From NCBI GenBank assembly GCA_947629095.1, contig CANRCK010000001.1:124001-188000 (forward strand): DNA of 64,000 nucleotides, read 5' to 3'. The DNA is from an uncultured Clostridia bacterium (GTDB taxonomy: Bacteria; Bacillota; Clostridia; Christensenellales; Borkfalkiaceae). The notes under the pieces were generated by a model. It was not told where the DNA came from. It searched no databases and saw nothing but the letters and a program-made list of their open reading frames with translations. Below, piece after piece: positions 15,001 to 28,401 of the stretch (position 1 is its first letter; each line of letters opens with the position of its first letter). The position numbers and the translations under genes were made by a program.

Positions 15001-18000
15001 GTCTTTATAGTAGTCCTCGCCCGACTCCGTTTTGTTGTTTATAAATATTACAAACGTCCAGCCGATAGCCTTGTTATCCGCCGCGGTCGCATACTGCGAG
15101 AGCTCCTTGTTACCCGCCTCCTGCTCGTTTTCGTCGTGGCTGTCGCCGAGGTGAAGGGCATAGTGGAACTGCTCGTCATAATCCTTGCCGCCCGCGCCCG
15201 CAACGTTGGTCGAGCCGTAGGCATGAACGGCGTTCAGCTTTATTGTGGCGGCAGTGATCTCAAAGCCGTTCTCTATGTACGTGCCCGCGTCGTGCTTCAC
15301 CTCGTTGCCCGACTCCGAAACGAGGGTCACATCGTAGCACTGCCCGCCGTTTCCTGCATATGCGAACGAGATATTGTGCTTGCCCACGCCGAGCGTCGTG
15401 CTTTCGTCGGGGATAGCCTCTGACGAGAGCGTGAAGAATTTAACGCCCGTTTTTCCGTCCTTATAGTCGCTTTCGAATATATCCGATATCTCCTCTCCGT
15501 TGATATAGTTTACGCCGTCTTTTACCTTGATGGCGTAGGCATCGCCGAGCTTGTTGAGGTCGTAGCGTGTCTCCTTTGCCGTTGCGGCGTTATAGTAGTA
15601 GGTATTTTTAGCTTTCGAGTCGTAAACGGTCACGGTTACGGGAAGAAGTTTTACCTTTACATGGTTTGCCTCGGCGCCCTCCGCCGAATATGCCTTTGCC
15701 TTGAAGGTATAGTCCGTGGCGGTGAAAGCCGCGAAGCCGAGCTCGAGCTGGTAATCGCCCGAGGGATCGCCCGCCTTATAGTCTTGACCGCCCTGCTTCT
15801 TTATTTTCCACGTTATCTGCGACACGTCCGAGATATTCATGGCTTTGCTTACGCCGGCGCCGTCATCTTCGGCTTCGCCGCTCATAAAGCCCTCGAATTT
15901 GTATTCGGGATTATAGCCCTCGAAATCTTCGCTGTAATAGCCCTCAAAGTTGGCGTAAACCTCTACGTCTGCCTTGCTTATTGTAACCTCTATATATTTG
16001 TTTTCGCCGAACAAATACTCGTGGTTTTCGGCAAGCACGGCGTAATACACCTTGTACGTGCCCGCATGCTTGAACTGCGGCATCGCCGTCTGCCATGTGT
16101 AGCCGTCCGCCGAGGAGAGCGAGCCGTCCGTATATGTGAATCCGGGAGCTTTCCACTCCGTATTCCAATCTGCTTCGGAGCCGCTTTCGGCGTTCCAGCC
16201 GTCGGTCAGGCGGAAGTAAACCGCAAAGTAGTTGTCGTTTGCGCCCTTTGCAGCGCCGTCCCATGCGGAGTATTCCTGTAAAACGCCCTTATTGTCGTAG
16301 TATGTGCCATTGATACCGTTTTCGGCGGCAAGCGCGCCGTGAATGGCTGCGTTGTAGACGCCCGCGTACGCGCTGATGGTAAACCCGTTGTCCAATATTT
16401 TGGAGGCGGTAACTATATAGCCATTGTCTGCCGTGCACTGCTCGCCTTTATCGTCCGCCGTACCGTGGCTGCTCGAGCCGTTGTGATAGTCCATCTTGAA
16501 CGTGACGGAATAGTTGTCGTCTATCAGGGTGAGAACGACCTTGTATCTGCCGACGTCGGGATATTCCTCGGACGTTATTATGTTTATATCGCCGTTTAAA
16601 GCCTCTATTTTGAATACGTTTTCATTTTTGTGCCCGTTTACAAGCGTAGCCGAGCCCTTGCCGCCAAGTGACGTATAGCTGTCGCCGAGCGCGACCGCAA
16701 CGTGCGAGGCGGGATCCTGCCTCGCCGCGCCGTACTCGTGCTCCTGCCTGTCGTAGGTCACCACAAGCGGGCGGGCGTTCACGGTTATCGCCGCGCTTGT
16801 AAAGTGAACGTGATAGTCGTAGCCGCCCTGACCGTTGGAAGTATCCAAGTCGGTCTTGCCGCTCGTCACGAAGTAGCCGCCGTCGAAATTCGCGTCCTCG
16901 CCGTTGAATATCAGCTTGAATTCATTGTTTAATACGCCCTTGCCCGTTTCTTTGGTAAGGGTTTTGACGGCTATCCAGAAGTTCTTTGCCTCGGCTTCGG
17001 TGAGGAATTGGTTTTCCTCGCCCTCGCTGCCGTCGCCGTATTCCCAACCGCCGGCTTCGCCGTTCCATACGGGCACCTCGTCGCCGTAAACATAGCTTAA
17101 ATCGCCCGCTTTAAGGTATATGTCGCGCGCCATGAGATAGACGTTGTTGAAACGGTTATCATAGCCGTCCACGCCGTAAGTGGGCAACTGATAGTTTAAA
17201 CCCTGTTCCGCACCGGAGAATTCATAGGCATAGAAGCGGTATGCCTCTTCGTTTTCCTTTACGTACTTGAAGGGAATGGGAGTGGTCAAAGATGAGTTGT
17301 CTTTTATCGCGCGGACGAGCAGATATACCTTTATGGGTGCGCCCGTCTCGTCCTTTTCGGTTGCGGACTCATAGTAGGCGAGCCAAGCCTTGGTGCCGTT
17401 TTGGGTCCTGTCGGTGCCGTCGTAGTAGAAAGTGAGATCCCCGTCCCACTTGACCGTTACCGTGCGCTTTGCTACGGTGTGCGTGCCTTCCGTAACCCTG
17501 ATTACGTAGTTGTTTGTAGTAACTTCGGCGGATATAAGCTCGCCGTCCTTGTAGATCTGCGTCTTATATGTGCTTACATTCGCCGCTATGCCCGAAGCGG
17601 TGGATTGTACCGTGAGGGTGAAAGTTGTCAACGCGTCATTTTGCGTGCGGTCGTCAATTGCACCCTCCGACCATTCGGACTCGCCGCCGTCAACGATGAA
17701 GTGCGCGCTTGAACCGTTGTACGTCCACGCAAGGTCGCCCGCCTTGAAGTCGTCGCCGTAAATTGTGGTGACGGTGTTGGCCGTTATGCTTACCTCGCGC
17801 CTGTTCATTGTGAACTCATAGCTCTGCTTCGAAGTATCAGAGATTTCGAGCGTGTAGTTCTCGTCGCCGGAATCCACTATGGTGAAGGTGTATTTGCTCT
17901 CCGAGGCATACTTGAAGCCGCCCGACGCCTCTTCGCCGCCCAGCTTTATGGTGACGGAAGGCGCGATGCGCTTGCCCGTGCCGTCGGCCGCGGAATAATA

Positions 18001-21000
18001 TACGAAGTCTGTCTCGTGGTCGATATATTGGTTTGCGCCGTTATATACGTATGTCTCGTTGGCGCTGTTCCACGTAACGTCCGTTATCACCTTGGGCGTT
18101 ATTGTAAACACGCCCTCCGAATCCGTGTAATCGAACTTGTAGTTTTTGTAATCGTCCTTGTATTCTTCCTTGATCTCGACAACGGTCTTATACGCTCTGC
18201 CCGCCTTGGATATGGGGGTGGTGCGCTGTATAAGGCTATTGTCCTGCGTGCGGCAATATACGTTGAACGCGCTGCCGAAAATCGTGCTCAGCGTTTCGTC
18301 GCCCTTAACGAACTCTCCGTCCGCTATTTTGTAATACTTGGAGCCGAGGGCCGCGTCGCCGTAGCTCGTTTCGCCTGTAATCGTGTCGCCGTATTGGCGG
18401 GTTATATTCTCGGCTTTGAGCTTTATGACGGCGGGATTTATCTTGAAATCGTATGTTGTGCGCTTAGCCTCTTCGGGCAGTTTGTAGTTTGCCGCCGAAA
18501 CGCCCGTTATTGCCGTTGCGCGCATGGTGTATGTGCCGATGGCCGCACCCGTCTCGCTGCGGTTGACGTCCTTGGGACCTTCTGCATCGAGCGAGCCGTC
18601 CTCCTTTACCCACTGCACGGTGAGCTCGGTTACGTCCGCGGAAAGGTCGCCCGTGTCTTTATGGTTGGTGACGGGGTCGCTTATGTACGCCTTTGCGAGG
18701 TGATTTTTACCGTCGTAAGTCACCTCCATATTGTCCTCGCCCTGACGCCATGCAACGGTGGCTTCGCGCGGGGCGATGGTGAAGAACACTTCCCATACAA
18801 CGGCGTCGAGCGTGGTTTCGCCGCCGCCGTCGTTGCCGTTTTCGGCATAGTGAATGAGAGCAACGTAGTCGCCCGCCTTGTAGGGCAGTTTGTAGGGAAT
18901 GATGGTTTCCGCTTTCTTGCTGACGTTGTTGCCGCTTACGTCCTCCAAATGGCCGCCGTCAGAGTATCTGTTAAAGAGCAGGTCGTCCTCGGCCACGTCA
19001 ATTCTTCTGCCGCCCTCTATCTTCTGATAGGTGACGTTGCGCCCGTTCTTTTCCGTGTCGAAATCCCACGTGTCGGGCTCTTTACCGGCGGTGAATTCGC
19101 GTTTGATGGTTATAAGCGCCGTGCCGTAAACTTCGCCTATGCGCTGGTTGGCAAGGTCGCCGTAGTTCCACGCGGTGGCGCGGTCGTCTATATCCGTGCC
19201 GTTCACCTGCAAGGTGAAGGTTGCGGAATATCTGCCCTTCAATATTCTGTAATAGAGCTTTATCGTGACATGCTCTGCCGTGGTTTTGGGCGCGTCGTTA
19301 TAGGTGGGAGCAAGGTAGCTGTTGACCTGCGTTCCTTCGTAACTTCCCTCCGTGGTGGAGAACGAGGACACCCACGCGTAGTCGGTTGCCGTTTCGCCGT
19401 TCAATATGAGGGTCAGCTCAATGTAATAGTAGCCTACGTCCACGCTGTCTGTGATGAGCGTGTCTGTAATATCCTTGCCGTCGGAGACCCTGTAATATTT
19501 TACGGTGAAAGTGATTTCCCACGCATCTTCTCCGTCCACATTCTTTTTATATGTGCCTTTTTCGCCCGTAACGCCCGGCACCTTTTTGCTGTGGTTGACG
19601 GTGTCGAGGGCGCCGTCGAAATCGGGATAGAGCGGGCTGCCTGTACGGGGCTGGGCGCGGAAGTTCAGACTTTCGCTCTCCGCCAGCATGGGAGCGGCTA
19701 TGGTGCGCTGTTTTATCTCCCAGAAATCCTTGTACTCGTCCACAAGTGCGTCTATGCCCGTTGTGGCGTCGGGCTTGCGGTCCGCACTCTCGTAATTTGC
19801 GGTCGCCCAGCAATAGTTTTCTGAGTCTTTGAGGGAAATTTCAAAGGAATATTTGCCCGCGTGCTTTGCCGTAAGTTGCAGGTTGCCGTCAACAGTTTGA
19901 TTTTCTATTTCGCTTGAAATTTCGTTGTCCGTGCTGTCCGTGCCCTTGAAGTCGCTTATCTCCATGAGGGAATCTTTCCAATTCTCCAATTGGAAATTCT
20001 GGCTATTTTTGTTGTACACGTAGTCGGCGGGGTTATCGCCCGAGCGCACGGGCTTTTCGAGCTTTTGTTTGTAGATGGTATATGTAACCTCCACGGAGCT
20101 ATCGGCACTGCCGTTGGAGTCCGCTCCCGTGGTGTAACTGTTGATATAGTAGTTGCCCGCTTGGTCGCCGGAAATGGCGGTGACAGTTGCGGTGTAGTAG
20201 CCTGCGTTCACGGCTTTCGTGTTATCACTAATGGTCGCGCTGTCCGTGCCGTCGGCGGAGGTAAGTTTGTATTCTACCTTGACGTCGTCGTCCGCATGGT
20301 CGCCGGCAAGCTGCACCTCAAGCCCCTGCGCTTCGGCGGTGTAGGTTGCCGTGGGCGCCGCAACATAGGAGCGGTCGTCCGCGCCCTTCCACTCTACCTC
20401 GAGAGCTATGGGGTTGATACGGAATGAGAAGGATTTATTTACCCTGTCAAGAGAGCTGCCTGCCGTCCCGTTTTTCCAGACGAAATTCTCGCTTGCAAGC
20501 TCTACCGTAATTTCGTATGCCTCAACAACCGCGCTGTCGCCGTCGCCCGTGCCGCGCTTGACGTCCGTCTTTGAAACGACGTCGTCTGTTCCGTAATAAA
20601 TCTTAACGCGGTCCTCGCTGTCCGAGCCGAGCTTTGCATTATAATACTCTTCGGGATTGGTGAGCGCGCTCTTGAACTCCTGCGGCGCGCCGTTGTAGTC
20701 CGTCTCGTACACGTTACCTACGCCGTCGATTTCGGGCGCGTCCAGCTCATAGGGCTTTATCTGCAGATAGAAGGTATAAGCCTCGTCCGCGTTCTTGGCG
20801 TTGCCCGCCCACGAGTAGTTGTCGTGGTCGGCAATGTAGTAATTGATTTCGTAATAGCCGAGCTCGCTGCCCACGGCTACCCATTTTACGTTGATAAATT
20901 TAGGCGCCTTGTCTTTGACCTCGTTTTCGGACGTTTCGTAGTCGGCTGAGGTGATCTTTATGAGTTCCGCTATCTCTTCCCAGTTGGATATATAGTTGTT

Positions 21001-24000
21001 GAAAAGATAGTTTTCGCCCTTATATGTTACGATTATAGTGTCGTTAGCCTGCTCGTGTGTGCCGAATTCCGCGCCGTCTGAAAGCTGCAGCACGGGAACA
21101 GCCACGCTCTGCGAGGTTATGTTGAACGATATCTCCACGCACTTTACATCGCCTGCGAAAATATAGTTGTCGGCAATGCACACATAGTTTTCGCCGCTCT
21201 CGTAAATATCTTCGATTTTTGCACTGTTTATGCACTCTCGGATCGAAAGGTCGTATTCCAGCACGGACCAATACCCGTTGTAGGCCTCTGTGGGGTTTTC
21301 TTTGAGCGCGTCGCCTGCTTTGTCCTTATATACCTTGGGCAGGAACGTGAGCCTATCCGAGCCTGCGTTCGTGGCCGTGGGAACGGGAGCGTGGCCCTCT
21401 CCGTCGTAGGTAAAGGTTGTCGGGGCCCAAGTTATTGTAAGCTCCTTGCGGTTCAGCTTGAAAACAACATCGCACGTTGCGGGATAATCGTCGCCGCCGT
21501 CCGTTGCGGGCGAATCGCCCGCCCAGCGATAGTTTTCGGGGTTATCCAGCGTGAAAGTAACGGTGTACGTGCCGGCATATGTCACGCCCGCAGTCAATTT
21601 GTTCCCGCTTGTGTCGTAGTTGGTGTAGTAGTGTTGGTCGTTATGGTCCGTGGCTGTTTTGAACACGGCTTCCGAATAGGAAACGCCGTTAAGAGTTGCC
21701 TGCGTGGTATTCGTATCGAAGTTTTTGAATTCAAATATCACATGCTCGCCCGTATATGTCTTTTCCGCGTCGGTGGTGGGCTTAACCATGGACTTTTTGA
21801 GGATCTTCCACTCAATTGCGTAATTTTCCTGCACGGCGGCGGGCGCGGCAAGGGCGGCGGCGTCCGTTTCATTTATATAATAGTTGTCCGTGGGCTTTAA
21901 ATACAGGGTGTATTTGCCCGCGTTTACGGCTTTGGACACGCCCTCGCTCGATACAAGGGTGACATACGAGCCGAGCGCGCCCGTCTGTGAATAGGTTGTG
22001 CTCATTCCCGATTTTGTAAACCGCGCGTCCATATCCGAACCGGTGTATTCATGCTCTTCGGGCACGAAGAAAGGATAGTCCGAAGTGTTTTTCGGGTCTA
22101 TGCGCATGCGGTTGATAGTCCACGTTATAACCGCGTACTTTGTTCCGTCGACGTCCGTAAACGCAATGTTGTCGTTGCCCGTGGTCTCGTCCCAGACGTC
22201 GTTGGCATAGTTTTTCAGCCTTACATAGATCTTATATACGTCCGCATTTGTCGCACTGACGTAGTCATCCATTGTTGTAATGGGGCTTTGAGTGCCGTGT
22301 ACGGTGCTCTTTGTGAGAGTGGAATATAATTCCATTGTCGCTTCCGGATCGGAAACGGCGTTGAAGTTTTGCAGTTCGGCGGTCTGTTCAGCCGCATTGT
22401 AGGTCACTTCGTAATTTTCCAGCGTGGGCGCGGCGATTTTGCGCTTCAGAATTTTGAAGGGCGTGATATACTCGCAGAAATTGTAGTCCTGGAAATCATA
22501 GTCGAGACCGCTTCTGTTCTCTTCTTCGTTGAGGATATATGTGCTGTAAACTATCGCATAGTACTCATTTTCCTCGTCCGCGCCGAGAGTGTAGGCATTG
22601 GCCTCGGGCGTGCGGGTCACGTTTTTGTCCTGTAAGAATTTATAGAAGCCGCCGTTGGGTATCTGCCCCGTTTCGGCATAGCTTGCCGTATATTGTTCGT
22701 AATACGTTTTGTACGTTTCGTTGCTTATGACGGCCACTTCGTAATTGCCGTAGAAAGGCTCGCTTGTGACTTTGCCCTTGATTTCCGAACGGCTGTAATA
22801 GGGGCGCATGGGCAAAACGTCCTGCATTGTCCAGCCGTCGCCTTCCCTTTCGGTAAATTCCGCCTCTATGGTGTTGCCCTCGTACTTGGCTATTTCGAAT
22901 TCGAGTTTGAGTTCCAGCCCGTCCTTACTGCTGCATATACCGCCGTTATCGGGCAGATAGTTGTCGGCGTGCCAGTCGTATATCCTTGCGTACTTGTCGT
23001 TTAATTTTATATGAATATTGTATTTGCGCGCGTGCGTGAGGCTTTCAACAGGCGCGCCCGCTACGCCGCCCTGATTGGAGTTTTCAAAGGTTATAATCCA
23101 ATCGAAGTCGTCGCCTTCGTGGCTATCCTTGTCGAATTTCGTATTTTGGTCGTCGTAAAATACTACCTTGTAAAAGTCGTAAAGGTTGTAAGGTTTGCCG
23201 TTGTAAACGGGGGCCTTGATTTTTACCACGTTGGGGTTTTCGGGGTCGGATTCATAGGTTTCGCCAATCCATTTGAGCATGAGCTGGCGCGCGTTTATGG
23301 TGAAATATTTTGTCACCTGCTGAACGCTGTAGTTGCCGTCCGGCCAGATATCTATCTGCACGGCGTAATAGCCCGGCTCCGTGGGCGCGCCGTTTAAATC
23401 GTAATATGTAGTGCCTTCCGATCCGGGGAAGGATATGCGGTATTTTTTACCTTCTTCGCCGAGAGGGCCGCCAAACTCGTCATTCTTCGTGTATTGGGCG
23501 TACACCTTTCTCTGTTCGCCCGAGCCGACATACAGCGTTATGGTGTATGTAAAGCTCTCTTTATAGCCGATGGTTGTGGGTATATCCACTTCCATAGAGA
23601 GGGTAAGGCCCTTTACTTCGAAGGTGACATACCTGTACAGCTGGCTGTCCACAGGCAGGGTGTCGTCCGTTCGGCTCTTGCCTGCGTTTGCGAGGCCCCA
23701 ATCCGCTTCCTCGTCCGACGGGGCGGCTATACCGCCGCTCTCGGGGTTCCACACATAGCTGCCGTCCTTATACAGCGAATCGTACATACGGTAGTTGCCC
23801 ACTACCGAATCGCCCGTCAGTTTGAGATAGTATCTGCCGTTAGATCTGTTTTGGACTATCTCCACCTTGACGCCGAGACTGTCGTTCACCATCTCTACGG
23901 ACCATGTGCCGCGGGGTCTTGTAGGGTCGAAAGGTTCATCTTGCTTGTATGTGGTTTTGGCGAGGAATTCCCACTTGTCATTCACATAGCGGTAGAATTG

Positions 24001-26544
24001 CAGGCTGTAACGCGCGCCGTTTATGCCGTCGTGATACATATTCGCTGCGGCAAAATTGTTGAGCTGAAGCTCGGCGCCCGATTGCGGAAGCACTTTGCCC
24101 TCCGCGTCCTTCTGGGTTTCGTCCAGAGCATACACAAGGTCGCCGTAGCTTACGGTGCTGTTGGCGAAAGTGGGAATGGAGATTTGGGAGCTTGCAAGCT
24201 CAAACATGTCGCCTATTTCGTAGTCCTTATAAAAGGCCTTGGCGTGTTGGATAACCTTGCCTTCCGCGCCTTCTGCTCCGACAGTCTTGATTTCGTCTAT
24301 CACGTACACAAGGCGCACGTACTTGATTTCCGAGCGCAGACGGGTATAGGGATTGCCGTCCGTTCCGATCGAGCCTTTGAAATAATTATATATGGTATTT
24401 GCGTCGGGGCCGTCGCCTCCGTCCAGCGGAATTTCTTTAAAATCCTTGTTTCTGTTAAACGGATATTTTTGTACCGCCGACTCGCTTGTGAAATCTTCCT
24501 CCTTGTAGTAGTAGATTGCAAGATAGCCGAGGCCCGGCTGATAGCCCGACGTTGCATTGAACGAAGGATGCTGGAAAATGACGCCATTGTCCGCCGTCTT
24601 TTTCTCGCCCGTGCGCCCGTTTATTCTCAACCCCATTTTCATTGTATTAGTGAAAGCCCTGTCCTCGCCATGCTGATAGGTAAACATAAACGTAGTTTCA
24701 GACCCTGAGGCGTTGAAGTTGAATTCGCCGTTGATGATCTGTGTACCCGGGCTGCCTGCGAGATTCACGCCTATGATCTCTTCATAGGAAACGCGCACGG
24801 GGAAATAAGTGACAGTGCCGGAGTAATTGCAGGATAACCACCTGACAAATGTGCCGTCCTGATATTCATCGTAATTTTTGATTTCATCATTGGTTACGTA
24901 ATAGCTCTGTTTTTGGGTTACGGGGTCTCCGTTGCCGGAAAATAGCAACCCACGCGTTTCGGGTATAATCTGCCTGCCCGAACGCTTGTAATGGATTATG
25001 CTGAACCGACCTTTGTTTTGAAGCAACTTCAGCATGTTGTCTTCGTAATCGAAAAATTCCGAAGGGGTGATGGGGTTAACAAGCTCGCCCTCGGTCTTTT
25101 TATATCTGTTGTCTACGGCCGCCTGCCATACCGTATTCCCGTCGCTGCCCTTTACCTCTTGCTCATAACTTATATCGTTGTAATAGCCGCCCTCGTCGTT
25201 GAACTTGATTTGGATCACGTTGGACTTGATTGGATTGGTTTTGCCGTAAACAAGGGCGATGGGATATTTGCTTACCTCGTCGGGATTGGAGGGAATCGGA
25301 GTGTCTGCGGATATGTTCATTTCGGGATCCGTGCCGAGCACCGTCTTCATGCCGCCGTTGTTATCGTAAATGTGCGCCAGAATACCGAAACGGGTTATAT
25401 ATTGATAGTCCTCCGTATTGCTGCCGCTGCCGATAAAGTTGTAATAGGCGTGTTGCGAAGTGCTTGAATAGTACTTTACGGACGTGCCGGGCTGGGCGCC
25501 ATCCTTTACGGGCACTTCCGCGCCGCGGGCGCGATACCATGTGCCGGAACCATCCTCATAAGTGTTGTAAACCGTGCCCTGCAAAAGGTCGGGGTTCGAA
25601 TTTTCGGGGTTGCGGCTATCATACCCTACGACTTCGTGACTGTTTCCCGGCGTCTGATTTATTCTTATACGGACAGCCTTAACGGAAAGCTCGCCGCCCG
25701 TCGGCTTCAATATGGTGGTGCTGTCGTTTTCTGCGCCCTCTTCCTTGAACTTTTCGTCAGGGTAAGTCAAAGCGACGGTGACGTTGTTGCTATCCGAAGT
25801 TCCGAACACAAATTCGGAAACGCTGGAACTTGCAAAAGACAGTTCGAGCAGCTCGCGGGGAACCTCCACCTTGCTGCCGCCCTTGAGGGTCGCCGTTATG
25901 CTTGCGCGGTAGTCGAAGGAGTAAATATTGTGCCCCTGCAGTTTTGTGGTAGAATAGACGGCGTCGGCGGGAGGCGTACCCGTCAGCGTGCCCTTTTCAA
26001 ATGCGGGGTCGGGAGACAGAGTCACCGACAGAGTGGGATTGTTTTCCACGTGCGAGGACTCTATTTCCTTTGCGATATACAGCGTGACCTCGAACGAGCC
26101 TTCCGCCGTTTCCATTTCGGCAAAAGGCTTGAAATCTGCGCCGTTTTTGCGGTCGCCGTAGGTCTGGGCGCCTATCTGTATTGTGATATTGAACTCGTTG
26201 GGCTTCAACAGGCGGTTATCGTCCGTTCTGTCGCCGTCCGTGGAGGTGTTGACGTTAGCCCTTGCGACGATACGCGACTTTATATCCCACAGCGTGGTGC
26301 GCATATACACGTTGCCTGCCGTTTCGCCGTAATGTTCGGTGTCGAACGTGGGCGAACCCACCCAGTTGTTGAAGTGGGTAATGTCGCTGTCTATGTATTC
26401 GGCTACCGTATCCTCCTCGGCGGACACGACGACCGGATTGTCGCCCGGTTTCACGAGCGTTACAACGCCCATGACCGCAGTGACCAGCGCCAAAATAGCG
26501 CAAAGAACAATTGCCAATAATTTTTTGGAATATCGTTTACTCAT
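1..26544 (-). CDS. Giant secreted MBG-repeat surface protein (3' end beyond window)
   Basis: The frame starts at ATG 26544-26542 behind a good ribosome site (AAGGAG, about 5 nt spacing) and stays open to base 1, giving 8,848 codons, roughly 950 kDa, without a stop. I read codons in frame in the first 1.2 kb, the last 2.5 kb and many places between; the start frame and the left-edge frame agree. Residues 1-45 look like a signal peptide (MSKRYSKKLL, then a hydrophobic core). About 700 residues of less repetitive sequence follow, then a long series of 85-100-residue beta domains. Each has a KxLTVT-type strand, a VYGxE or YNG motif, AGxYxVxVxL, and NYxW or NYTI before the next unit. These resemble MBG/MBG_2 domains of bacterial surface adhesins; I estimate 80-90 units. 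Cysteine is very rare. The cell anchor must lie beyond the left edge. The likely role is a surface fibre or adhesin; the ligand is unknown. Confidence 0.93.
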   Translation of the reverse strand, partial: MSKRYSKKLLAIVLCAILALVTAVMGVVTLVKPGDNPVVVSAEEDTVAEYIDSDITHFNNWVGSPTFDTEHYGETAGNVYMRTTLWDIKSRIVARANVNTSTDGDRTDDNRLLKPNEFNITIQIGAQTYGDRKNGADFKPFAEMETAEGSFEVTLYIAKEIESSHVENNPTLSVTLSPDPAFEKGTLTGTPPADAVYSTTKLQGHNIYSFDYRASITATLKGGSKVEVPRELLELSFASSSVSEFVFGTSDSNNVTVALTYPDEKFKEEGAENDSTTILKPTGGELSVKAVRIRINQTPGNSHEVVGYDSRNPENSNPDLLQGTVYNTYEDGSGTWYRARGAEVPVKDGAQPGTSVKYYSSTSQHAYYNFIGSGSNTEDYQYITRFGILAHIYDNNGGMKTVLGTDPEMNISADTPIPSNPDEVSKYPIALVYGKTNPIKSNVIQIKFNDEGGYYNDISYEQEVKGSDGNTVWQAAVDNRYKKTEGELVNPITPSEFFDYEDNMLKLLQNKGRFSIIHYKRSGRQIIPETRGLLFSGNGDPVTQKQSYYVTNDEIKNYDEYQDGTFVRWLSCNYSGTVTYFPVRVSYEEIIGVNLAGSPGTQIINGEFNFNASGSETTFMFTYQHGEDRAFTNTMKMGLRINGRTGEKKTADNGVIFQHPSFNATSGYQPGLGYLAIYYYKEEDFTSESAVQKYPFNRNKDFKEIPLDGGDGPDANTIYNYFKGSIGTDGNPYTRLRSEIKYVRLVYVIDEIKTVGAEGAEGKVIQHAKAFYKDYEIGDMFELASSQISIPTFANSTVSYGDLVYALDETQKDAEGKVLPQSGAELQLNNFAAANMYHDGINGARYSLQFYRYVNDKWEFLAKTTYKQDEPFDPTRPRGTWSVEMVNDSLGVKVEIVQNRSNGRYYLKLTGDSVVGNYRMYDSLYKDGSYVWNPESGGIAAPSDEEADWGLANAGKSRTDDTLPVDSQLYRYVTFEVKGLTLSMEVDIPTTIGYKESFTYTITLYVGSGEQRKVYAQYTKNDEFGGPLGEEGKKYRISFPGSEGTTYYDLNGAPTEPGYYAVQIDIWPDGNYSVQQVTKYFTINARQLMLKWIGETYESDPENPNVVKIKAPVYNGKPYNLYDFYKVVFYDDQNTKFDKDSHEGDDFDWIITFENSNQGGVAGAPVESLTHARKYNIHIKLNDKYARIYDWHADNYLPDNGGICSSKDGLELKLEFEIAKYEGNTIEAEFTEREGDGWTMQDVLPMRPYYSRSEIKGKVTSEPFYGNYEVAVISNETYKTYYEQYTASYAETGQIPNGGFYKFLQDKNVTRTPEANAYTLGADEENEYYAIVYSTYILNEEENRSGLDYDFQDYNFCEYITPFKILKRKIAAPTLENYEVTYNAAEQTAELQNFNAVSDPEATMELYSTLTKSTVHGTQSPITTMDDYVSATNADVYKIYVRLKNYANDVWDETTGNDNIAFTDVDGTKYAVITWTINRMRIDPKNTSDYPFFVPEEHEYTGSDMDARFTKSGMSTTYSQTGALGSYVTLVSSEGVSKAVNAGKYTLYLKPTDNYYINETDAAALAAPAAVQENYAIEWKILKKSMVKPTTDAEKTYTGEHVIFEFKNFDTNTTQATLNGVSYSEAVFKTATDHNDQHYYTNYDTSGNKLTAGVTYAGTYTVTFTLDNPENYRWAGDSPATDGGDDYPATCDVVFKLNRKELTITWAPTTFTYDGEGHAPVPTATNAGSDRLTFLPKVYKDKAGDALKENPTEAYNGYWSVLEYDLSIRECINSAKIEDIYESGENYVCIADNYIFAGDVKCVEISFNITSQSVAVPVLQLSDGAEFGTHEQANDTIIVTYKGENYLFNNYISNWEEIAELIKITSADYETSENEVKDKAPKFINVKWVAVGSELGYYEINYYIADHDNYSWAGNAKNADEAYTFYLQIKPYELDAPEIDGVGNVYETDYNGAPQEFKSALTNPEEYYNAKLGSDSEDRVKIYYGTDDVVSKTDVKRGTGDGDSAVVEAYEITVELASENFVWKNGTAGSSLDRVNKSFSFRINPIALEVEWKGADDRSYVAAPTATYTAEAQGLEVQLAGDHADDDVKVEYKLTSADGTDSATISDNTKAVNAGYYTATVTAISGDQAGNYYINSYTTGADSNGSADSSVEVTYTIYKQKLEKPVRSGDNPADYVYNKNSQNFQLENWKDSLMEISDFKGTDSTDNEISSEIENQTVDGNLQLTAKHAGKYSFEISLKDSENYCWATANYESADRKPDATTGIDALVDEYKDFWEIKQRTIAAPMLAESESLNFRAQPRTGSPLYPDFDGALDTVNHSKKVPGVTGEKGTYKKNVDGEDAWEITFTVKYYRVSDGKDITDTLITDSVDVGYYYIELTLILNGETATDYAWVSSFSTTEGSYEGTQVNSYLAPTYNDAPKTTAEHVTIKLYYRILKGRYSATFTLQVNGTDIDDRATAWNYGDLANQRIGEVYGTALITIKREFTAGKEPDTWDFDTEKNGRNVTYQKIEGGRRIDVAEDDLLFNRYSDGGHLEDVSGNNVSKKAETIIPYKLPYKAGDYVALIHYAENGNDGGGETTLDAVVWEVFFTIAPREATVAWRQGEDNMEVTYDGKNHLAKAYISDPVTNHKDTGDLSADVTELTVQWVKEDGSLDAEGPKDVNRSETGAAIGTYTMRATAITGVSAANYKLPEEAKRTTYDFKINPAVIKLKAENITRQYGDTITGETSYGDAALGSKYYKIADGEFVKGDETLSTIFGSAFNVYCRTQDNSLIQRTTPISKAGRAYKTVVEIKEEYKDDYKNYKFDYTDSEGVFTITPKVITDVTWNSANETYVYNGANQYIDHETDFVYYSAADGTGKRIAPSVTIKLGGEEASGGFKYASESKYTFTIVDSGDENYTLEISDTSKQSYEFTMNRREVSITANTVTTIYGDDFKAGDLAWTYNGSSAHFIVDGGESEWSEGAIDDRTQNDALTTFTLTVQSTASGIAANVSTYKTQIYKDGELISAEVTTNNYVIRVTEGTHTVAKRTVTVKWDGDLTFYYDGTDRTQNGTKAWLAYYESATEKDETGAPIKVYLLVRAIKDNSSLTTPIPFKYVKENEEAYRFYAYEFSGAEQGLNYQLPTYGVDGYDNRFNNVYLMARDIYLKAGDLSYVYGDEVPVWNGEAGGWEYGDGSEGEENQFLTEAEAKNFWIAVKTLTKETGKGVLNNEFKLIFNGEDANFDGGYFVTSGKTDLDTSNGQGGYDYHVHFTSAAITVNARPLVVTYDRQEHEYGAARQDPASHVAVALGDSYTSLGGKGSATLVNGHKNENVFKIEALNGDINIITSEEYPDVGRYKVVLTLIDDNYSVTFKMDYHNGSSSHGTADDKGEQCTADNGYIVTASKILDNGFTISAYAGVYNAAIHGALAAENGINGTYYDNKGVLQEYSAWDGAAKGANDNYFAVYFRLTDGWNAESGSEADWNTEWKAPGFTYTDGSLSSADGYTWQTAMPQFKHAGTYKVYYAVLAENHEYLFGENKYIEVTISKADVEVYANFEGYYSEDFEGYNPEYKFEGFMSGEAEDDGAGVSKAMNISDVSQITWKIKKQGGQDYKAGDPSGDYQLELGFAAFTATDYTFKAKAYSAEGAEANHVKVKLLPVTVTVYDSKAKNTYYYNAATAKETRYDLNKLGDAYAIKVKDGVNYINGEEISDIFESDYKDGKTGVKFFTLSSEAIPDESTTLGVGKHNISFAYAGNGGQCYDVTLVSESGNEVKHDAGTYIENGFEITAATIKLNAVHAYGSTNVAGAGGKDYDEQFHYALHLGDSHDENEQEAGNKELSQYATAADNKAIGWTFVIFINNKTESGEDYYKDDDFFDNDYASDKDVIYKKGENPQIIDAGTYILHYRLKLDNHTTVFGKLTGKIAKAKNTWLNQYELNGRNVNGNAWIYGAKAENNPTGYDSSDITETIPVAKFNRKFGVDGSEGANATEKMNVVPDVTLTKDGKPVEGFAMDFYASSIQGWLSQNSKTSGKESYKNGALLGAGEYTVTYSMPATENYEAISVETVEFTVGKKELTVKTDNDSIFYGEDAPALPKTTITGYVNGEGESALDTSSRTYRIVKTLRGNDDYEKGYENGSVGDYYITLTWGAGASDNYTLNINENGENPGMLTVKPRALTVTISDKENKYNFNISKAKEDIQWFDDLSKMVTVKNTNSGDGTHYTNFYSDEISKVIRLTTDALKWNTEPGYKVADINTNATSDAGYYKITGVSYDPTGYGKNYVISFAGQWGKTTETNSHASEPEAGKCGIFHIAPADVTIVVIKPTDGYDAGTGKFVYTGHQKTFQAGNVQGAESSLSATIVYYQWDSEDYTIELNVEAPVNVGKYKVGFTLSGAGKDNYTAATAEEEFEIVPKQIDVTYQTKWYGTDGGMELLPAGGDIVYYMREYIVEGTFNTQTADEDTWKDGNNADAKVVFADSGKIRIYVTYQKTGGEENKVIGAGTYNVYAKVQYNAGGDDWQDCGNYAIKQRPSQITVSQKVVDDASATYPGGANSMTYNGELNAFTVKNYVGDRDEFISKEVMSYKLEYSKDGTFNGSQQTLTDADENITVEGGVIKWNTLNAGAYRITVTLNSPENYDFHTTSRDSWAFTFTINKKDLYVQVKDADIPYGDAFDGTFIEGLELLFSESPMDGGYTETRGLVEHDIEGGHIKEGVLNKGGISIEADQYNQSNSAGYSTKIKLSGITADNYNVTCEDYGKLTVVPRSITVKIADPEEGSVYIGGEFTVARLEERYQPILTLEGCTLNTAVDGDNVKNLQISFTVEGYNVGTHALVPADNDPDYDITFTGSWGEGDYAGKAGTFTVVRAKLTVTVIIINGTGDNGLNITFGDTPKYGVSYSGWVGEDISSNPELLQEFTFENVQQNYPTQETYAAGSSIAGSKYKVTVKNQDDKDIFFVNYTVEFAEGVIMTVVSRTITPTVSNNNRQFEDDDARGNKPLPAEIGYANECEGFEPSATITYKGDYNDPMAEFAGKNGFVEDVPQRAGRFQVKLALPQNDLSDYNYKFAKGATETELEYVIEKQKITLQWRYPLIQDGTKENSIDAFDRRIMNFSYAFDSAPVEDFELSDSGVTVTIKGAGTGVGTVTLKNEYDYTLVATSADSGSSTLVLTFRVILDDVGFTVQITGWKYSQFSEDANLPKYQTKLTISNPVVQYQYIALLEGDIATWKGYSEQLANTELDKGERQNILNELEKLLKARTVTTVIENKDAGSYLVYATLSEQVDYASAVSACYFEISKLDLAVPTLTPEGGHDVCYYNGNEHSMNITDFNSATMEYIADSGLTITNKEADGGVVTVLSATEAGDYTIKWILKDAKNYVWKGETQDPVTTYTIKQNTVKVSTGNDISTTYGSEYTPNTVVSFENLNDGATFKDFEVTYGYKNTVGDAAISEIAPKPAGEYRIYAKVADGGNNYSGIKEWTEIGTLTIGKAALKIYTAGAEVEYGDVAPEFTYMTDSDLFGEELADLLAELGITSSADGYAPGKGVSADNGYPIKIQLNSATLDNFTVTVNEGKQGEAYLKVVPRSLTLTIKTLSKYFNDFKAPEFAPTVVYSVTEGSDYINVVSGSVYGSDKLQIKLSLAAAADNRYKVGRYELTGTVDNDYEEGAQANYKVTVNGGYIDVERLTIEFTHTEVKPADGTKIIYNHGNAVPLHIFLQYTPADNSEQTCEQAESKIGIEGYEKYLRVTYSGSDNLNDRYGNTEEVTKAPVKAGTYRASILLAEEYEDQVELTGTSSARYDVYIIERFELDIAKIQAKTSYKHTYNGEQYKPDKATVEGDVKRALAELYASGDGTAQATLEGSFSVGEYSEGLNVGTYNIPIAFTTAAAANYSWVRGEAPVYAETADLTFEIERQQETKIYSENTATTEHIFDGKFNADKLKMTSNVRVFKDFKINPNIGDITVYVASGGVQPRKDETDKWTELTYEQAIAVNSAAAMAGMHWIYIKLGETENYAAAETEILSYEIKPRNVLIKVNGGKDYIGPDYNDSLTLEQLTAPTYEFIDGENSGSILGEDNAIGIITASLKATFTYSGASFGGSKFNGVKVEAGKYSIMATADGTCATCFVIANAENCAVEGAEPHYIVPRAAVYGNDVVVKSFNYDAKAHTAADAVKDNVEGYDKLWSVEDVTGTNAGTYSFNVTLKDQNHHWARFAGENIADERTDSVPLFFTINRVTAAVELTSITFSVTAHGTEEPEDKVLTYSDVAKWTYLDEASRTNIVYKVTAGGNELTIDKSKVSVLYNVSDRWTLELPYMAGTYSVKLRLSETENFVNTAESGVLTFTIEKRTVEKIKSPNDYPGASYNYNGAYQTADLKDVDLAIMDVKTVTEGLTLSYTSAEEEGSQLIPRLRAINVNTYVFTVSLIDTANYKWADEADGTKDITVTWSILNVAGSVTLEEVSDVTYGEYFAVSAISDFATEFKFWYAAYNDEAQGLDVSVWQPWGSNGPKDAGKYWIRAELEKTGNYEAAYDYVKAEIKKAALTVTVTISESGEYRYGGRMPESFGVSADGLQYGERWSTLNVTLTYKFLDAGKGDMTGKKFVVGEYYVTLETITLKNYTVTVNDASFNVLPKQIQVNILPQTATYKGGEKPEIDQTQWELVDDGALEDGDSEFVSGEDIILAVETAEKYNATAYTINGTQGESVKNYSITFRPGALQIVEAQIEIAKINADNTVYGSVTAATFNIKDKDDNLESGYEYIKGQVKIIVKYFVDNAEPSADLPKNAGTYNVRLVLEGADADNYVLTGSTEATFVIDKKSIDSENIVNKVNGTTYTYKGDEQGPEVSEVVGYSEELFGVANLYTVDGLKKQTNAGDYTYELKIANSNYRWLVTDNDVVTASWTINKAGNTASWTAAPQNTVYGEPYNATATATWGADGIKYAYALYEEGGEYAAEDWFTGLPSSVGKYVIRALAEGNENYASAEVTKEITITAAELTVTIGSPEVVYGNELGAIELTVSGYKAPYSGRQAGEKDTADTSGWTVYEPTFRSFLSHDYLVGSPKGTYPITYDNGDIELGNYVIKSLKVVSGEIKVTERELKIVIENQQVVYSADYASAAPAIDSDKWHAAEGYSVYGEDRAKLGITLVLQQSAPFNVGTSYTIDLKIEANETNKNYTITVVEEGYGILTITPADFTVEEKQDGGAIQGGLAITPEIAEGNTGHGTDIDGKPQLGSVTITYGDDYEAEVYINGKHYKEGDEFSAGVFVHFVYTLLAATASDPAGPGIAGISLFSARDGGYKHPTDAGTYSVKLVLTDGEVGADGIYTEAENYTVKGSFETTIIINKKQLDHTAIVGKVNETPYTYNKSLLGPEKEIVEGYSESLFGIAELYTVEGLTKQTEAATYEYRLIIAETAFKNYRWAATDSQSITVSWKIGQADNSLSWNKQPETAVYGDSYEIEASAEFGEVKYAYAVKKDGDYVDGDWILGLPANAGSYMIRAYVDGTTNYAGADEQTEFSITRAELKVKIENQTITYGDEPAAFTLTVTGYKMPYNGTVAGATDDAASSGWALQIAAFRNGIRVQKGGVDYEPGSNVGDYTVTYTGGNITLDNYTIVAKEVIGGTLTVKERSITVVVEDQILPYIQDYATSAPNPDDTKWHIDGESILLEKDKEHLNIGVYLEDKGAAPYFADGTKYVINGEIMGENEYNKNYSITFVSANLTLTKQDITVESIKVTNNNSLLTDVTYGDEYTVKVVVGGIEYIVGAILPCGATVRFEFVESSYSGIGSGSTQQPINAGLYEVALVLDGNDTKNYNVTGANVTSYTINKKQLDHSLIVGKVNETPYTYNKSLLGPEKEIVEGYSESLFDIAELYTVDGLEKKTEAGTYEYQLKISETVFKNYRWAATDSQSITVSWTINKAANSLSWSKQPKTAIYGDSYVIEASAEFGEVKYAYAVKKTEDYVDGDWILGLPANAGSYMIRAYVDGTTNYAGADKQTEFSITRAELTVKIEDQTITYGDEPAAFTLTVTGYKTPHNGAAEGERVDDAASSGWALQIVAFREHLVVKAQTGDHGIYAVGSPVGKYDISYNGGAIEFGNYIIVASKVENGVLDVEKRELKVVIEDQSLEYNKKYQSEAPNPDDTKWHIDGESILLEKDKDNLGIGVYLVNTAAAPYKVGIPYAITGEYVENSVNSNYTILFTDGSLTLTATNIEVERVEVTNDKDGSTVIAYGDTYTVKVKLVNDEMLYGLGDELPCGATVGFLFTQVATVGEPKTVGSKPLNAGMYEVVMIFEGDDAVNFNITGRNTSAYLINKLVLSVADVQSMADSLYTVEEAEEPGPFGDTYNRYHFAPVYTGREQGVTNADLNAFIQLMRQDEDFLLEKDRIYAPFTAVSDKGTDVGVYAVHLTLSESVAANYMWDTTNSDSADINFEIRKAGNSVYLSVFGGKTASWEYDGYEAGTSEDLTVEPHKGFYEFTAKFGKATAQYKFYKVENGKDNPIDYTPVDVGEYKLQIVIPDTVNYAGCSSNLLPISITPRKLSISFRDQALMGGEYGSTILPASAVLSFYGGEPQSHNMFLSRVTMEYAYYGNSYDMTWRHAMEDYISEAPTQAGEYKIRVRLGMNEKSEGYSYNRNFVLVDETGEKINSIEDDFIITKARVFSDLLIVKTFDWDGMEHSAVDAVKDNFYYDKIYVVKNEYNVKYKAVGTYDFRIHLKDPNNYCWVPDENQDWRLLTFSIVATDGDGRNINIVEFFGMDANSPELEFPYSQSPNESAKVAYYSEGVTHYFRFNTDFVLLYAPRGTETPKQTLSWVGADKNFAPDGWSRELFLNAGRYTAIAWIDTDEFKGYSAQLLFAISKLEVKVIMETTKNGVYNESEPEFSIHGYYGNDFTI
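1740..6215 (-). repeat. Three tandem copies of a ~1.45-1.6 kb super-repeat inside the giant gene
   Basis: Blocks of about five MBG-like domains (about 480 residues) recur at roughly 1740-3180, 3183-4625 and 4626-6215. The first two are very close: the segment near 2700-2800 recurs nearly unchanged 1,443 bp later, with exact runs of about 90 bases. The segment at 2213-2271 recurs exactly 1,455 bp later, so a 12-bp indel lies between the two anchors. The third copy is recognisable but more diverged, with a spacing near 1,590 bp. Boundaries are approximate. This shows recent internal duplication and possible length variation by recombination. Confidence 0.8.
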
Positions 26545-26647
26545 ACTTACTCCTTACTTGCGCCGATATCTTTCGCGCGGCGCGTGCGCGTATTATTTGT
26601 TAAAAGTTTTGTTTATAGATTCTACGTCAAACGTTGTTTTTTTGATA

Positions 26648-26688
26648 AGCAGCACTGAATTTGTTTTTTTAACGTATTTCAGTGTGCT
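26648..26688 (-). promoter_or_regulatory. Hairpin in the leader of the giant gene
   Basis: On the transcribed strand, 11 bases at 26688-26678 pair with 26659-26648 (AGCACACTGAA with TTCAGTGCTGCT, one bulge), leaving an A-rich loop. It lies about 100 nt before the start codon and has no clean U-run after it, so it is not a convincing terminator. A second small GC-rich stem (GCGCC/GGCGC) sits just before the ribosome site. Either could tune translation or mRNA stability. No known riboswitch class was recognised. Confidence 0.4.
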
Positions 26689-26772
26689 GTTAAAATACAA
26701 CTTAAACGGCAAACGGATACCGCTTACCTGTGTGCCGCCACGAAAAATGACGAAATATGATATATGGCTATG

Positions 26773-26801
26773 ATTATAGCATATAAATTGTTAAATGGAA
26801 C
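26773..26801 (-). promoter_or_regulatory. Possible extended -10 promoter for the giant gene, outside the invertible segment
   Basis: The minus strand reads TGCTATAAT at 26781-26773, an extended -10 with a perfect hexamer, but the -35 region 16-17 bp upstream (TTCCAT/GTTCCA) matches poorly. If active it would give the giant gene some transcription whatever the state of the switch. The 12-mer TGCTATAATCAT is also present on the plus strand at 26959-26970 inside the invertible segment. Confidence 0.4.
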
Positions 26802-26887
26802 CGTGCTTTTTAAATCCTAACAATTCTTAACAATAAAAAAACCGAACAAAAAATGTTAAAATATCACACGCTAATACAGGTGGCAAA

Positions 26888-26910
26888 TTCATCTATTAGA
26901 ATAATAGACG
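26888..26910 (+). repeat. Left inverted repeat of the switch
   Basis: This 23-bp site contains TCTATTA-GAA-TAATAGA, two 7-bp inverted arms around an asymmetric centre, the layout expected of a tyrosine-recombinase core. It matches the reverse complement of 27037-27059 at 21 of 23 positions; the two differences are one base in the left arm and one near the right end. Confidence 0.8.
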
Positions 26911-26958
26911 AACAAGAAGCCCTATTCTATCAATCTGCAAGGCAAATTATGTAAGTTT

Positions 26959-26967
26959 TGCTATAAT
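26959..26967 (+). promoter_or_regulatory. Extended -10 element inside the switch segment
   Basis: TGCTATAAT lies on the plus strand with no good -35 box. It points the same way as the stronger promoter at 26994-27022, so it would also turn toward the giant gene upon inversion. Confidence 0.4.
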
Positions 26968-26993
26968 CATGTCGTATATTTGTTATTTTTTTC

Positions 26994-27022
26994 TTGACTA
27001 TTTAACATAATAGTGATAAAAT
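26994..27022 (+). promoter_or_regulatory. Strong promoter inside the invertible segment, pointing away from the giant gene
   Basis: TTGACT, 17 bp, TAAAAT with a TG extension before the -10. The predicted start is near 27029, so in this orientation the transcript crosses the right repeat and runs antisense into the 3' end of the recombinase gene. Its placement fully between the inverted repeats is the main argument for a promoter switch. Confidence 0.75.
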
Positions 27023-27036
27023 TCGTGCAAGAAATG

Positions 27037-27059
27037 CATCTATTATTCTATTAGATGAA
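27037..27059 (-). repeat. Right inverted repeat of the switch
   Basis: Read on the minus strand it carries TCTAATA-GAA-TAATAGA, the partner of 26888-26910 with 21 of 23 positions equal. It lies 27 bp beyond the stop codon of the recombinase gene. Confidence 0.8.
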
Positions 27060-27086
27060 CAAAATCGCGGGCATGTCCTGCGGTTT

Positions 27087-28001
27087 TTATTCTTGTTTTA
27101 GGTTTTTACCAAGTTTATTCATCATTGCGCACTTGTGTTCCATAAAGCTGTGAACATATCTTTTAAGCGTTATTGCGGGGTTGTTATGCCCCAAAATCTC
27201 GGATAATGTTTTTACGTCCATTCCGCACTCTATAGCCCGTGTGGCAAATGTGTGCCGCAAGCTGTGAAATCCCTTGTGCGGTATTTTAAGGTGGTTTTGC
27301 AGTAATTCAAAAGTCCGTTGATATGACCTGATTGATATTTCCTTGCCGTCACATCCGCTTATTACATAATTGCTTTTACTATATTTTTTCATCTCTCTCA
27401 TATGCGGTATAAGAGCTTGAGGAACCGGGATTATCCTTTTGGAGGATTTGGTTTTTGGCGAACCGATTATTTTTTTATATTTTCCATTTTCCCAATTATC
27501 CTGACAGGTCTTTGATATTGTAATAAGCCCCTTTTTAAAATCAATATCGTCCCATTTGAGCGCCATTAATTCTCCTATGCGTAATCCTGTATAGAGGCAC
27601 ACCAGAATACCATAATGCTTATAATTTTTATGTTTCAGTACATACTGCTCAATTTGTCGTTGTTCTACTATAGAAAAACTTTCAATTTCCCTTTCCTCAC
27701 TTCTCGGATATTGGACACAGTTTGAATATTGTTTTTCGATTACACCCGTTTTTTCTGCGCGTTGAAGTGAATTTTTCAGAACGCTTATTATGCCGTTTAC
27801 CGTATTCGCAGAATACTTTTCGGTTAAATCCGCAGTAAAGTTCTGAAGCACAGATACAGTAAGCAAAGCTATCTCATATTCACCTAATTGCGGAATTAAA
27901 ATTTTTTTTACAATGTCATTGTATTTTTTATATGTTTTGATTTTTTTAAACGGTTTAACGGTTGTTTCAAGCCATTCTGTCAGCCATTGTCTGTATTTCA
28001 T
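27087..28001 (-). CDS. Tyrosine recombinase / integrase, candidate invertase of the adjacent switch
   Basis: This 304-residue protein is a site-specific recombinase that would cut and rejoin DNA through a tyrosine-DNA link. Residues 1-95 form the helical core-binding domain and about 105-290 the catalytic domain. The full catalytic set is visible: R141 (TGLRIGEL), a lysine in the beta-hairpin (KTKSSKR, near 183-188), H246 and R249 (HSLRH), H272 (LGHNN) and Y282 (LKRYVHS). The start has a perfect AGGAGG site. It lies between the inverted repeats and two Cro/CI-like genes, and is separated from the latter by a terminator. It is AT-rich compared with the giant gene, suggesting acquisition. Alternatives are the integrase of a decayed integrative element; both could be true. 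That it acts on the 26888-27059 sites is inferred from position. Confidence 0.9.
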   Translation of the reverse strand: MKYRQWLTEWLETTVKPFKKIKTYKKYNDIVKKILIPQLGEYEIALLTVSVLQNFTADLTEKYSANTVNGIISVLKNSLQRAEKTGVIEKQYSNCVQYPRSEEREIESFSIVEQRQIEQYVLKHKNYKHYGILVCLYTGLRIGELMALKWDDIDFKKGLITISKTCQDNWENGKYKKIIGSPKTKSSKRIIPVPQALIPHMREMKKYSKSNYVISGCDGKEISIRSYQRTFELLQNHLKIPHKGFHSLRHTFATRAIECGMDVKTLSEILGHNNPAITLKRYVHSFMEHKCAMMNKLGKNLKQE

Positions 28002-28083: not shown

Positions 28084-28401
28084 CTATCTTTTTAAAATCT
28101 GAAAAGTTTCTATCATTTTACGGAGAGTTTCTTTCTCCAAATCAGATAAAGAGAACCATTCGCGCAAGACTCTTTCCTCGTTGGGCAGTAGCTCATATCT
28201 CTCAGTTCCGCAAAAGAACTGACCCGGAGTTATACCAAGCGCTTCGCACACTTTCATAATGCTTGAAAGTGACGGCGTTGCACCCGACTTATTCCAATCA
28301 TATATGGTATTCGTAGAAATATTCGTCTGCTTGGACAATTCGTAATTGGACCACCCTTTTTGTTCAAGCAACTCATTTATCCTCTTAACCACGTCTATCA
28401 T
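28084..28401 (-). CDS. Cro/CI-type (XRE) regulator, second of a tandem pair
   Basis: This 105-residue DNA-binding protein has an N-terminal helix-turn-helix of about 65 residues (NYELSKQTNISTNTIYDWNK), then an acidic helical tail ending in LSDLEKETLRKMIETF. The ATG overlaps the stop of the upstream regulator by 4 bp, so the two are translationally coupled. The two proteins are clear paralogues (GWSxYxLSKxT in both), so the pair arose by tandem duplication. Location between a recombinase and a tRNA suggests either regulators of the switch or remnants of an element. Targets are unknown. Confidence 0.85.
   Translation of the reverse strand: MIDVVKRINELLEQKGWSNYELSKQTNISTNTIYDWNKSGATPSLSSIMKVCEALGITPGQFFCGTERYELLPNEERVLREWFSLSDLEKETLRKMIETFQILKR

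What the first reader, a model, noticed from the sequence alone, without database searches (positions are those of the whole stretch)
26888..27059. Invertible promoter switch controlling a giant surface protein
Seen: 23-bp inverted repeats (21/23 matching), each with palindromic arms around an asymmetric GAA, enclose 126 bp that contains a strong promoter (TTGACT-17-TAAAAT with TG extension). The promoter points away from the giant gene; mirror positions after inversion place it pointing into that gene. A full-length tyrosine recombinase gene abuts the right repeat. Known: Clostridioides difficile turns cwpV and flagellar genes on and off with similar 150-200 bp elements and a tyrosine recombinase. 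Inference: this is an ON/OFF switch for an 8,800+ residue fibre, shown in its OFF state. I know of no such switch described for MBG giants.
Basis: partly seen in the sequence, partly recalled or inferred. Interest (0 to 1): 0.93.

Follow-up and report, generated by a model that had tools for sequence, protein, structure and literature searches.

The report
Invertible promoter cassette beside giant gene
A bacterium related to uncultured Clostridia carries a 172-base DNA segment, bounded by mirror-image repeats and lying beside a recombinase gene, that is likely flipped to point a predicted promoter toward or away from a gene for a 9,228-residue predicted surface protein; the same compact arrangement precedes dozens of other genes in related species, some with the segment inverted.

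Summary
Observation confirmed. At 26888-27059, 23-bp inverted repeats (21/23) enclose 126 bp holding TTGACT-17-TAAAAT beside an intact tyrosine recombinase gene; the own genome has no third site. It belongs to a family: of 116 related recombinase genes, 59 have a repeat pair just downstream (6 of 1160 shuffles), 40 of these with promoter score >=10 (14 of 295 shuffles). The promoter points away from the next gene in 40, toward it in 16, unclear in 3, and three pairs of relatives show the segment inverted between collinear flanks. Homology between the window's module and its nearest relative stops at the distal repeat, beyond which the genes are unrelated: an apparent exchangeable cassette. Not shown: inversion in this genome (its two nearest paired relatives share its orientation) or any expression. 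Against clean ON/OFF: two promoter-like sites lie between switch and giant gene, and both giant homologues found lack a switch, one with a strong fixed promoter. The cwpV/flagellar analogy is imprecise, since those switches act after initiation; closer are C. difficile cmr/pdcB, Cdi7, and clostridial inverton-recombinase pairs.

The parts
26888..27059 (.). predicted invertible segment including both repeats
   Evidence: family comparison
26888..26910 (+). left (target-proximal) inverted repeat; its outer end is the edge of module homology with L055
27037..27059 (-). right (recombinase-proximal) inverted repeat
26994..27022 (+). promoter-like TTGACT-17-TAAAAT with TG, pointing away from the giant gene in the assembled orientation
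   Evidence: scores
27061..27087 (+). terminator-like hairpin (11 pairs, -13.1 kcal/mol, z -3.45) between segment and recombinase gene, facing the promoter as assembled
   Evidence: my own script did not count it for the window
27087..28001 (-). tyrosine recombinase gene, 304 aa, no internal stop
1..26544 (-). giant secreted-protein gene (9,228 aa; ends 1,143 bp left of the window), predicted target
26545..26887 (-). 343-nt leader between switch and giant start codon
26858..26886 (-). promoter-like TTGCCA-17-TATTTT with TG, outside the segment, pointing into the giant gene
26773..26801 (-). extended -10 element (TATGCTATAAT) with weak -35, outside the segment, pointing into the giant gene

Best explanation
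The 172-bp segment at 26888-27059 is likely an invertible promoter, predicted to be flipped by the tyrosine recombinase encoded beside it, which would switch on or raise transcription of the adjacent 9,228-residue gene; as assembled, its promoter-like sequence points away from that gene. Shown: the repeats, the promoter-like sequence, the intact recombinase gene, the family of like modules, and inversion of the segment between relatives. Inferred: the recombinase binds the two 23-bp sites and, because their centres are in inverted register, inverts rather than deletes the DNA between; in the flipped form the promoter's -10 would end 380 nt upstream of the giant's start codon; as assembled, transcription would run toward the 3' end of the recombinase gene and stop at the hairpin at 27061-27087. 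The module (recombinase, hairpin, repeat-promoter-repeat) looks like an exchangeable cassette inserted upstream of the giant. Whether the assembled state is truly OFF is open, because promoter-like sites lie between switch and gene.
For: Two and only two sites in the held genome. Family: of 116 distinct related recombinase genes with at least 250 bp of 3' DNA, 59 have a repeat pair at score >=13 (shuffles 6/1160; upstream side 2/55) and 56 at >=14 (shuffles 2/1160; upstream 2/55). More distant recombinases, scanned over a wider stretch: 3 of 31 downstream and 1 of 31 upstream at >=14 (shuffles 1/305). Best promoter score >=10 in 40 and >=11 in 29 of 59 segments against 14 and 3 of 295 shuffles; 40 point away from the next gene, 16 toward, 3 unclear. 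Orientation changes at least 11 times on the recombinase tree of 56 rows. Inverted segments between collinear flanks: L067/L069, L135/L165, L071/L119. Next ORF runs the same way as the recombinase in 54 of 59 (3 opposite, 2 not callable). Terminator-like hairpin between recombinase and segment in 42 of 59 (shuffles 35/590). Module homology with L055 ends at the outer end of the window's distal repeat.
Against: No inverted form of this copy was found; L055 and L060 have the same orientation. Two of the four closest recombinases, L056 and L057 (71 and 68% identity), and the own-genome paralogue (59%; L035, whose 331-bp-spaced terminator-like arms pass the score) lack a convincing repeat pair. 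57 of the 116 genes have no pair at score >=13. Of 28 members with secreted-type targets listed (23 with a leader long enough to score), the window is the only one with a fixed promoter-like site scoring above 8 in its leader (10.9; 1 of 300 shuffles as high). Giant homologues G084 and G055 have no such switch upstream and no recombinase relative within 6 kb, and G084 has a strong fixed promoter. No expression or read data.
Confidence: 0.72

Rival explanations
1. The segment inverts, but the giant gene is mainly transcribed from fixed promoters between the switch and its start codon, so the switch only modulates expression or is a recently acquired bystander.
For: TTGCCA-17-TATTTT (TG) and TATGCTATAAT in the 343-nt leader; the leader is long (median 68.5 nt among members); G084's homologous giant has TTGATA-17-TATAAT 189 nt from its start and no switch.
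Against: The invertible promoter scores highest of the three (12.2 against 10.9 and 9.8); placement and direction match the other members.
Confidence: 0.3
2. The switch is a decayed or locked relic: the module was functional in relatives but no longer inverts here.
For: Same orientation in L055 and L060; L056 and L057 have lost the pair.
Against: The recombinase frame is intact with the expected active-site residues aligned; the two sites still match 21/23 although sites differ in sequence between family members.
Confidence: 0.15
3. A terminator switch of the cwpV kind: the segment carries no working promoter but forms a terminator in one orientation, gating transcription from upstream.
For: Recombinase and target run in the same direction, so read-through is conceivable; cwpV is a clostridial precedent (passages of PMC2784873).
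Against: No terminator-like hairpin inside 26888-27059 as assembled (the flipped form was not scanned for terminators), and a promoter-like sequence is present there and, at score >=10, in 40 of 59 members.
Confidence: 0.05
4. The recombinase is the integrase of a mobile element and the paired repeats are a coincidence of palindromic attachment sites.
For: Its nearest solved relatives are 'Int protein' chains, and two repressor-like HTH genes lie upstream.
Against: Repeat pair, promoter and target placement recur in 59 of 116 relatives but in 3 of 31 more distant recombinases; the one protein scan of the viral collection, which reaches close relatives only, found none.
Confidence: 0.03

Closest known systems
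Clostridial inverton group 139 with invertase group 35 (Microbiome 2025, PMC11892184; section 8 and passages read)
   Same: Clostridia; short invertible segment with a nearby tyrosine-type recombinase; orientation shifts measured in some members
   Different: Group 139 is defined by sequence similarity of its repeats and region, whereas here repeats mostly differ between modules; whether the two recombinase groups are one lineage could not be tested; the words 'giant' and 'MBG' do not occur in its text
C. difficile Cdi7 switch with adjacent recombinase CDR20291_3416 (PMC5903667, passages)
   Same: Switch with a recombinase gene next to it
   Different: The only such case in that genome; sequence not compared here
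C. difficile cmr and pdcB promoter switches (PMC9286219, passages)
   Same: Promoter inside an invertible segment flanked by short inverted repeats (pdcB: 174 bp, imperfect 19-bp repeats); pdcB also has a second promoter
   Different: RecV is required for the cmr switch and the pdcB recombinase was unidentified; only Cdi7 has a recombinase in its vicinity; pdcB's extra promoter lies upstream of the switch, here the extra sites lie between switch and gene
C. difficile cwpV switch (PMC2784873, abstract and passages)
   Same: 195-bp segment, imperfect 21-bp repeats, large surface protein
   Different: Promoter lies outside the segment, proposed terminator mechanism, recV not in the vicinity
E. 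coli fim switch (as described in PMC2784873 passages; otherwise recalled)
   Same: Tyrosine recombinases encoded in the same locus; inversion switches a surface structure
   Different: Two recombinases, distant host; not known to me as a cassette found at many unrelated genes (recalled)

Membership tests
Tyrosine-recombinase invertible promoter (inverton) | Short inverted repeats flanking a small intergenic segment | tested here: met
   21/23 over 23 bp, 126-bp spacer
Tyrosine-recombinase invertible promoter (inverton) | Promoter inside the segment | tested here: met
   TTGACT-17-TAAAAT with TG; sequence match only
Tyrosine-recombinase invertible promoter (inverton) | Intact tyrosine recombinase | tested here: met
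   PF00589 1.3e-28; Arg, His-x-x-Arg, His and Tyr regions align with 6en0; residue roles recalled
Tyrosine-recombinase invertible promoter (inverton) | Inversion occurs in this copy | not testable with these tools
   No reads and no second genome of the species; relatives show inversion
Tyrosine-recombinase invertible promoter (inverton) | Orientation controls the target's expression | not testable with these tools
   Needs RNA or reporter data
cwpV-type terminator switch | Promoter outside the switch and terminator formed in the OFF transcript | tested here: not met
   A promoter-like sequence lies inside and no terminator-like hairpin lies inside as assembled; outside promoter-like sites lie downstream of the switch, not upstream
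Inverton group 139 / invertase group 35 | Membership of those sequence groups | not testable with these tools
   Group sequences are in supplements, not available here

The most novel reading that the evidence does not exclude
This is one copy of a portable, self-contained cassette of about 1.2 kb (recombinase, insulating terminator, repeat-promoter-repeat, mostly with private sites) that one family of uncultured Clostridia moves from gene to gene, putting giant MBG surface proteins, leucine-rich and InlB-type repeat lipoproteins, pseudopilins, transporters and restriction-modification genes each under its own independent switch, and so creating combinatorial phase variation within a cell.
Probability: 0.5. 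Interest if true: 0.75.

Novelty: new variant of a known kind. Interest (0 to 1): 0.6.

Why it matters
Invertible promoters are known, but a single recombinase lineage spread as an exchangeable cassette over many unrelated genes, mostly with private recombination sites, would explain how small-genome uncultured Clostridia diversify their surfaces and defences, and would offer a set of recombinases and sites for testing recognition specificity. It also makes a gene for a 9,228-residue protein a testable case of phase variation: making such a protein only in part of a population would be an obvious saving (inference).

Tried and rejected
Other copies of the site in the own genome: none. Exact site in viral contigs: none. 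Recombinase relatives in viral contigs: none in one scan that reaches close relatives only. Rfam in 26400-27200: none up to E 1. Giant orthologues with a switch: two homologues found in the other 100 genomes searched, neither with one; the best repeat pair upstream of the G055 homologue (score 15, so above my cut-off of 14) is C/G-run sequence 613 nt from its start, and no recombinase relative lies within 6 kb of either homologue's start. Close relatives with an inverted copy of this very module: none; L055 and L060 are in the same orientation. cwpV-type and mobile-element readings disfavoured as above. Literature: ten full-text searches, judged by listings and by passages of four papers, showed no report of a switch of MBG giants; the library holds open-licence PMC papers only, so this is not proof of absence. 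Structure prediction was not used.

Limits of the counts: the promoter scores use sigma-70 weights recalled from E. coli. The 59 include a few likely false positives, for example L035 (own-genome paralogue, 331-bp spacing, terminator-like arms) and L152 (weak promoter). Members at score 13-14 are the least sure. Not every recombinase place listed was fetched (mostly lower-scoring ones were left out), and that list was itself cut. The control of distant recombinases used a 700-bp stretch and a wider arm position than the family scan. My hairpin script scored the window and L055 as lacking a terminator, although one search finds one in the window. Targets were called by simple ORF rules, and 'secreted' or 'lipoprotein' by simple patterns; in L067 the ORF picked by rule is not the frame of the gene homologous to L069's LytTR target.

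Full report
Observation. The repeats, spacer, promoter-like sequence and recombinase gene are as described. Sites 26888-26910 and 27037-27059 match at 21 of 23 positions in inverted register, and a search with up to 3 mismatches finds only these two in the held 1,492,526-base genome (85% complete), with no control match. The recombinase is 304 aa, has PF00589 and an N-terminal SAM-like domain, and aligns through its active-site regions with solved 'Int protein' chains. The giant ORF runs to 9,228 aa, with a hydrophobic N-terminal segment, a C-terminal hydrophobic segment with a charged tail, no LPXTG motif, and three MBG_2 stretches in the part inside the window.

A family of modules. The recombinase has relatives at E<=1e-60 in 120 of 398 genomes of its family (12 of 18 genera), up to five per genome in that search. 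From the DNA fetched, 120 distinct genes passed my length filters, and 116 had at least 250 bp of 3' DNA. An inverted repeat pair with its first arm within 160 bp of the gene's matched end scores >=13 in 59 of 116 (6 of 1160 Markov shuffles; 2 of 55 on the upstream side) and >=14 in 56 (2 of 1160; 2 of 55). Among 31 more distant recombinases (32-43% identity) from the wider order, class and phylum, scanned over a longer stretch, 3 have a downstream pair at >=14 and 1 an upstream pair (shuffles 1 of 305); the strongest of them (L168) is from the same order. So the arrangement belongs mainly to one recombinase lineage.

Promoter and orientation. Within the 59 segments the best promoter scores >=10 in 40 (14 of 295 shuffles) and >=11 in 29 (3 of 295). 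It points away from the next gene in 40, toward it in 16, and is unclear in 3. On a tree of the 56 clear cases the orientation changes at least 11 times (shuffled mean 14.1; 16-19 of 500 shuffles as low, so near relatives resemble each other a little). The next ORF is co-directional with the recombinase in 54 members, opposite in 3 and not callable in 2. A terminator-like hairpin lies between recombinase and segment in 42 of 59, in 37 on the strand facing the promoter of the 'away' orientation (35 of 590 shuffles on either strand); that script missed the window's own hairpin, which one search finds and folds.

Inversion seen between relatives. L067 and L069 (G093, G028) are collinear over about 17 kb at 82%, with the recombinase on the same strand, but 123 bp of the 204-bp segment align on the opposite strand (80%; over the whole interior 67% flipped against 43% direct). 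L135 and L165, two modules in one genome (G198), have collinear flanks (76 and 87%) and an inverted segment (83%). L071 and L119 (G052, G371) have an inverted segment at 91%. These support inversion by members of the lineage; they do not show it in this window. L055 and L060 have the window's orientation.

An exchangeable cassette. Window and L055 align at 71.6% over 1,168 columns, from 39 bp before the recombinase start codon (28040) to 26888, the outer end of the window's distal repeat; beyond it the window has the giant gene and L055 an ORF with leucine-rich (LRR_5) and Flg_new repeats. L063, L064 and L095 share a switch at 89-92% but their targets diverge just before or shortly after the start codon, and L119 and L038 share a switch but not a target. 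Pfam scans of 19 chosen targets (some in part only) found LRR_5, Flg_new and InlB-type repeats, a pseudopilin methylation motif, an ABC transporter, a solute-binding protein, LytTR, GrpE, a restriction enzyme (Tsp45I), DNA methylases and a helicase-associated protein; 4 of the 19 had no family. Sites of different modules in one genome are on average less alike than the two sites of one module (mean similarity 12.0, n = 16 pairs, against 19.5), with exceptions: L071/L038 (30), L135/L165 (23) and L134/L153 (18).

The weak point. The giant's leader is 343 nt (median 68.5 nt among members) and holds two promoter-like sites on the giant's strand, TTGCCA-17-TATTTT (score 10.9; 1 of 300 shuffles as high) and GTTCCA-17-TATAAT with an extended -10 (9.8; 6 of 300); the flipped invertible promoter would score 12.2. 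Giant homologues occur in 2 of the other 100 genomes searched (G084, 41%; G055, 37%). Neither has a recombinase relative within 6 kb upstream; the best upstream pair scores 10 at G084 and 15 at G055, the latter a C/G-run sequence 613 nt from the start. G084 has a strong fixed promoter ending 189 nt before its start codon. The module may thus have been added upstream of an already functional promoter. I put inversion competence of this copy at about 0.8, and clear control of the giant at about 0.6.

Against what is known. The cwpV and flagellar switches of C. difficile act after transcription initiation, and cwpV's promoter is outside its switch (passages); cmr and pdcB are promoter switches. 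Only Cdi7 in C. difficile R20291 has a recombinase in its vicinity (passages of PMC5903667). The closest published set is inverton group 139 with invertase group 35 in gut Clostridia (PMC11892184, section 8 and passages). The kind is therefore known; what is added is the exchangeable, mostly private-site cassette and its placement at a giant gene.

Noticed in passing
window 29795-32170 (-): Three-domain LigD (phosphoesterase, ligase, primase-polymerase; non-homologous end joining) near the switch.
   Followed up: no
window 28084-28401 and 28398-28733 (-): Two tandem HTH_26/RstR-like repressor genes directly upstream of the recombinase; homology with L055's module stops before them.
   Followed up: partly
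L073 (G009:C3; same place seen as L021): Two tandem repeat pairs with different site sequences downstream of one recombinase gene.
   Followed up: partly
L071 and L038 (both G052): Two modules in one genome share nearly the same site, in opposite orientations, so cross-talk or larger rearrangements are possible.
   Followed up: partly
L067, L075, L077, L038: The recombinase-proximal recombination site is itself a hairpin followed by a T run, so the site may double as a terminator (read by eye, where these places appear as L014, L024, L026 and L038).
   Followed up: partly
L075, L126, L142, L135/L165: Restriction enzyme (Tsp45I), type III methylase, MmeI-like methylase and helicase-associated genes as switch targets: possibly phase-variable defence.
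   Followed up: partly
window 26708-26728 (-): Stable 9-bp hairpin (-12.5 kcal/mol, z -3.43) in the giant's leader, downstream of all three promoter positions.
   Followed up: no
L072 versus L114: Same switch (92.6%), but about 7 kb following it in L072 is absent in L114: gain or loss of a target cluster behind a fixed switch.
   Followed up: partly
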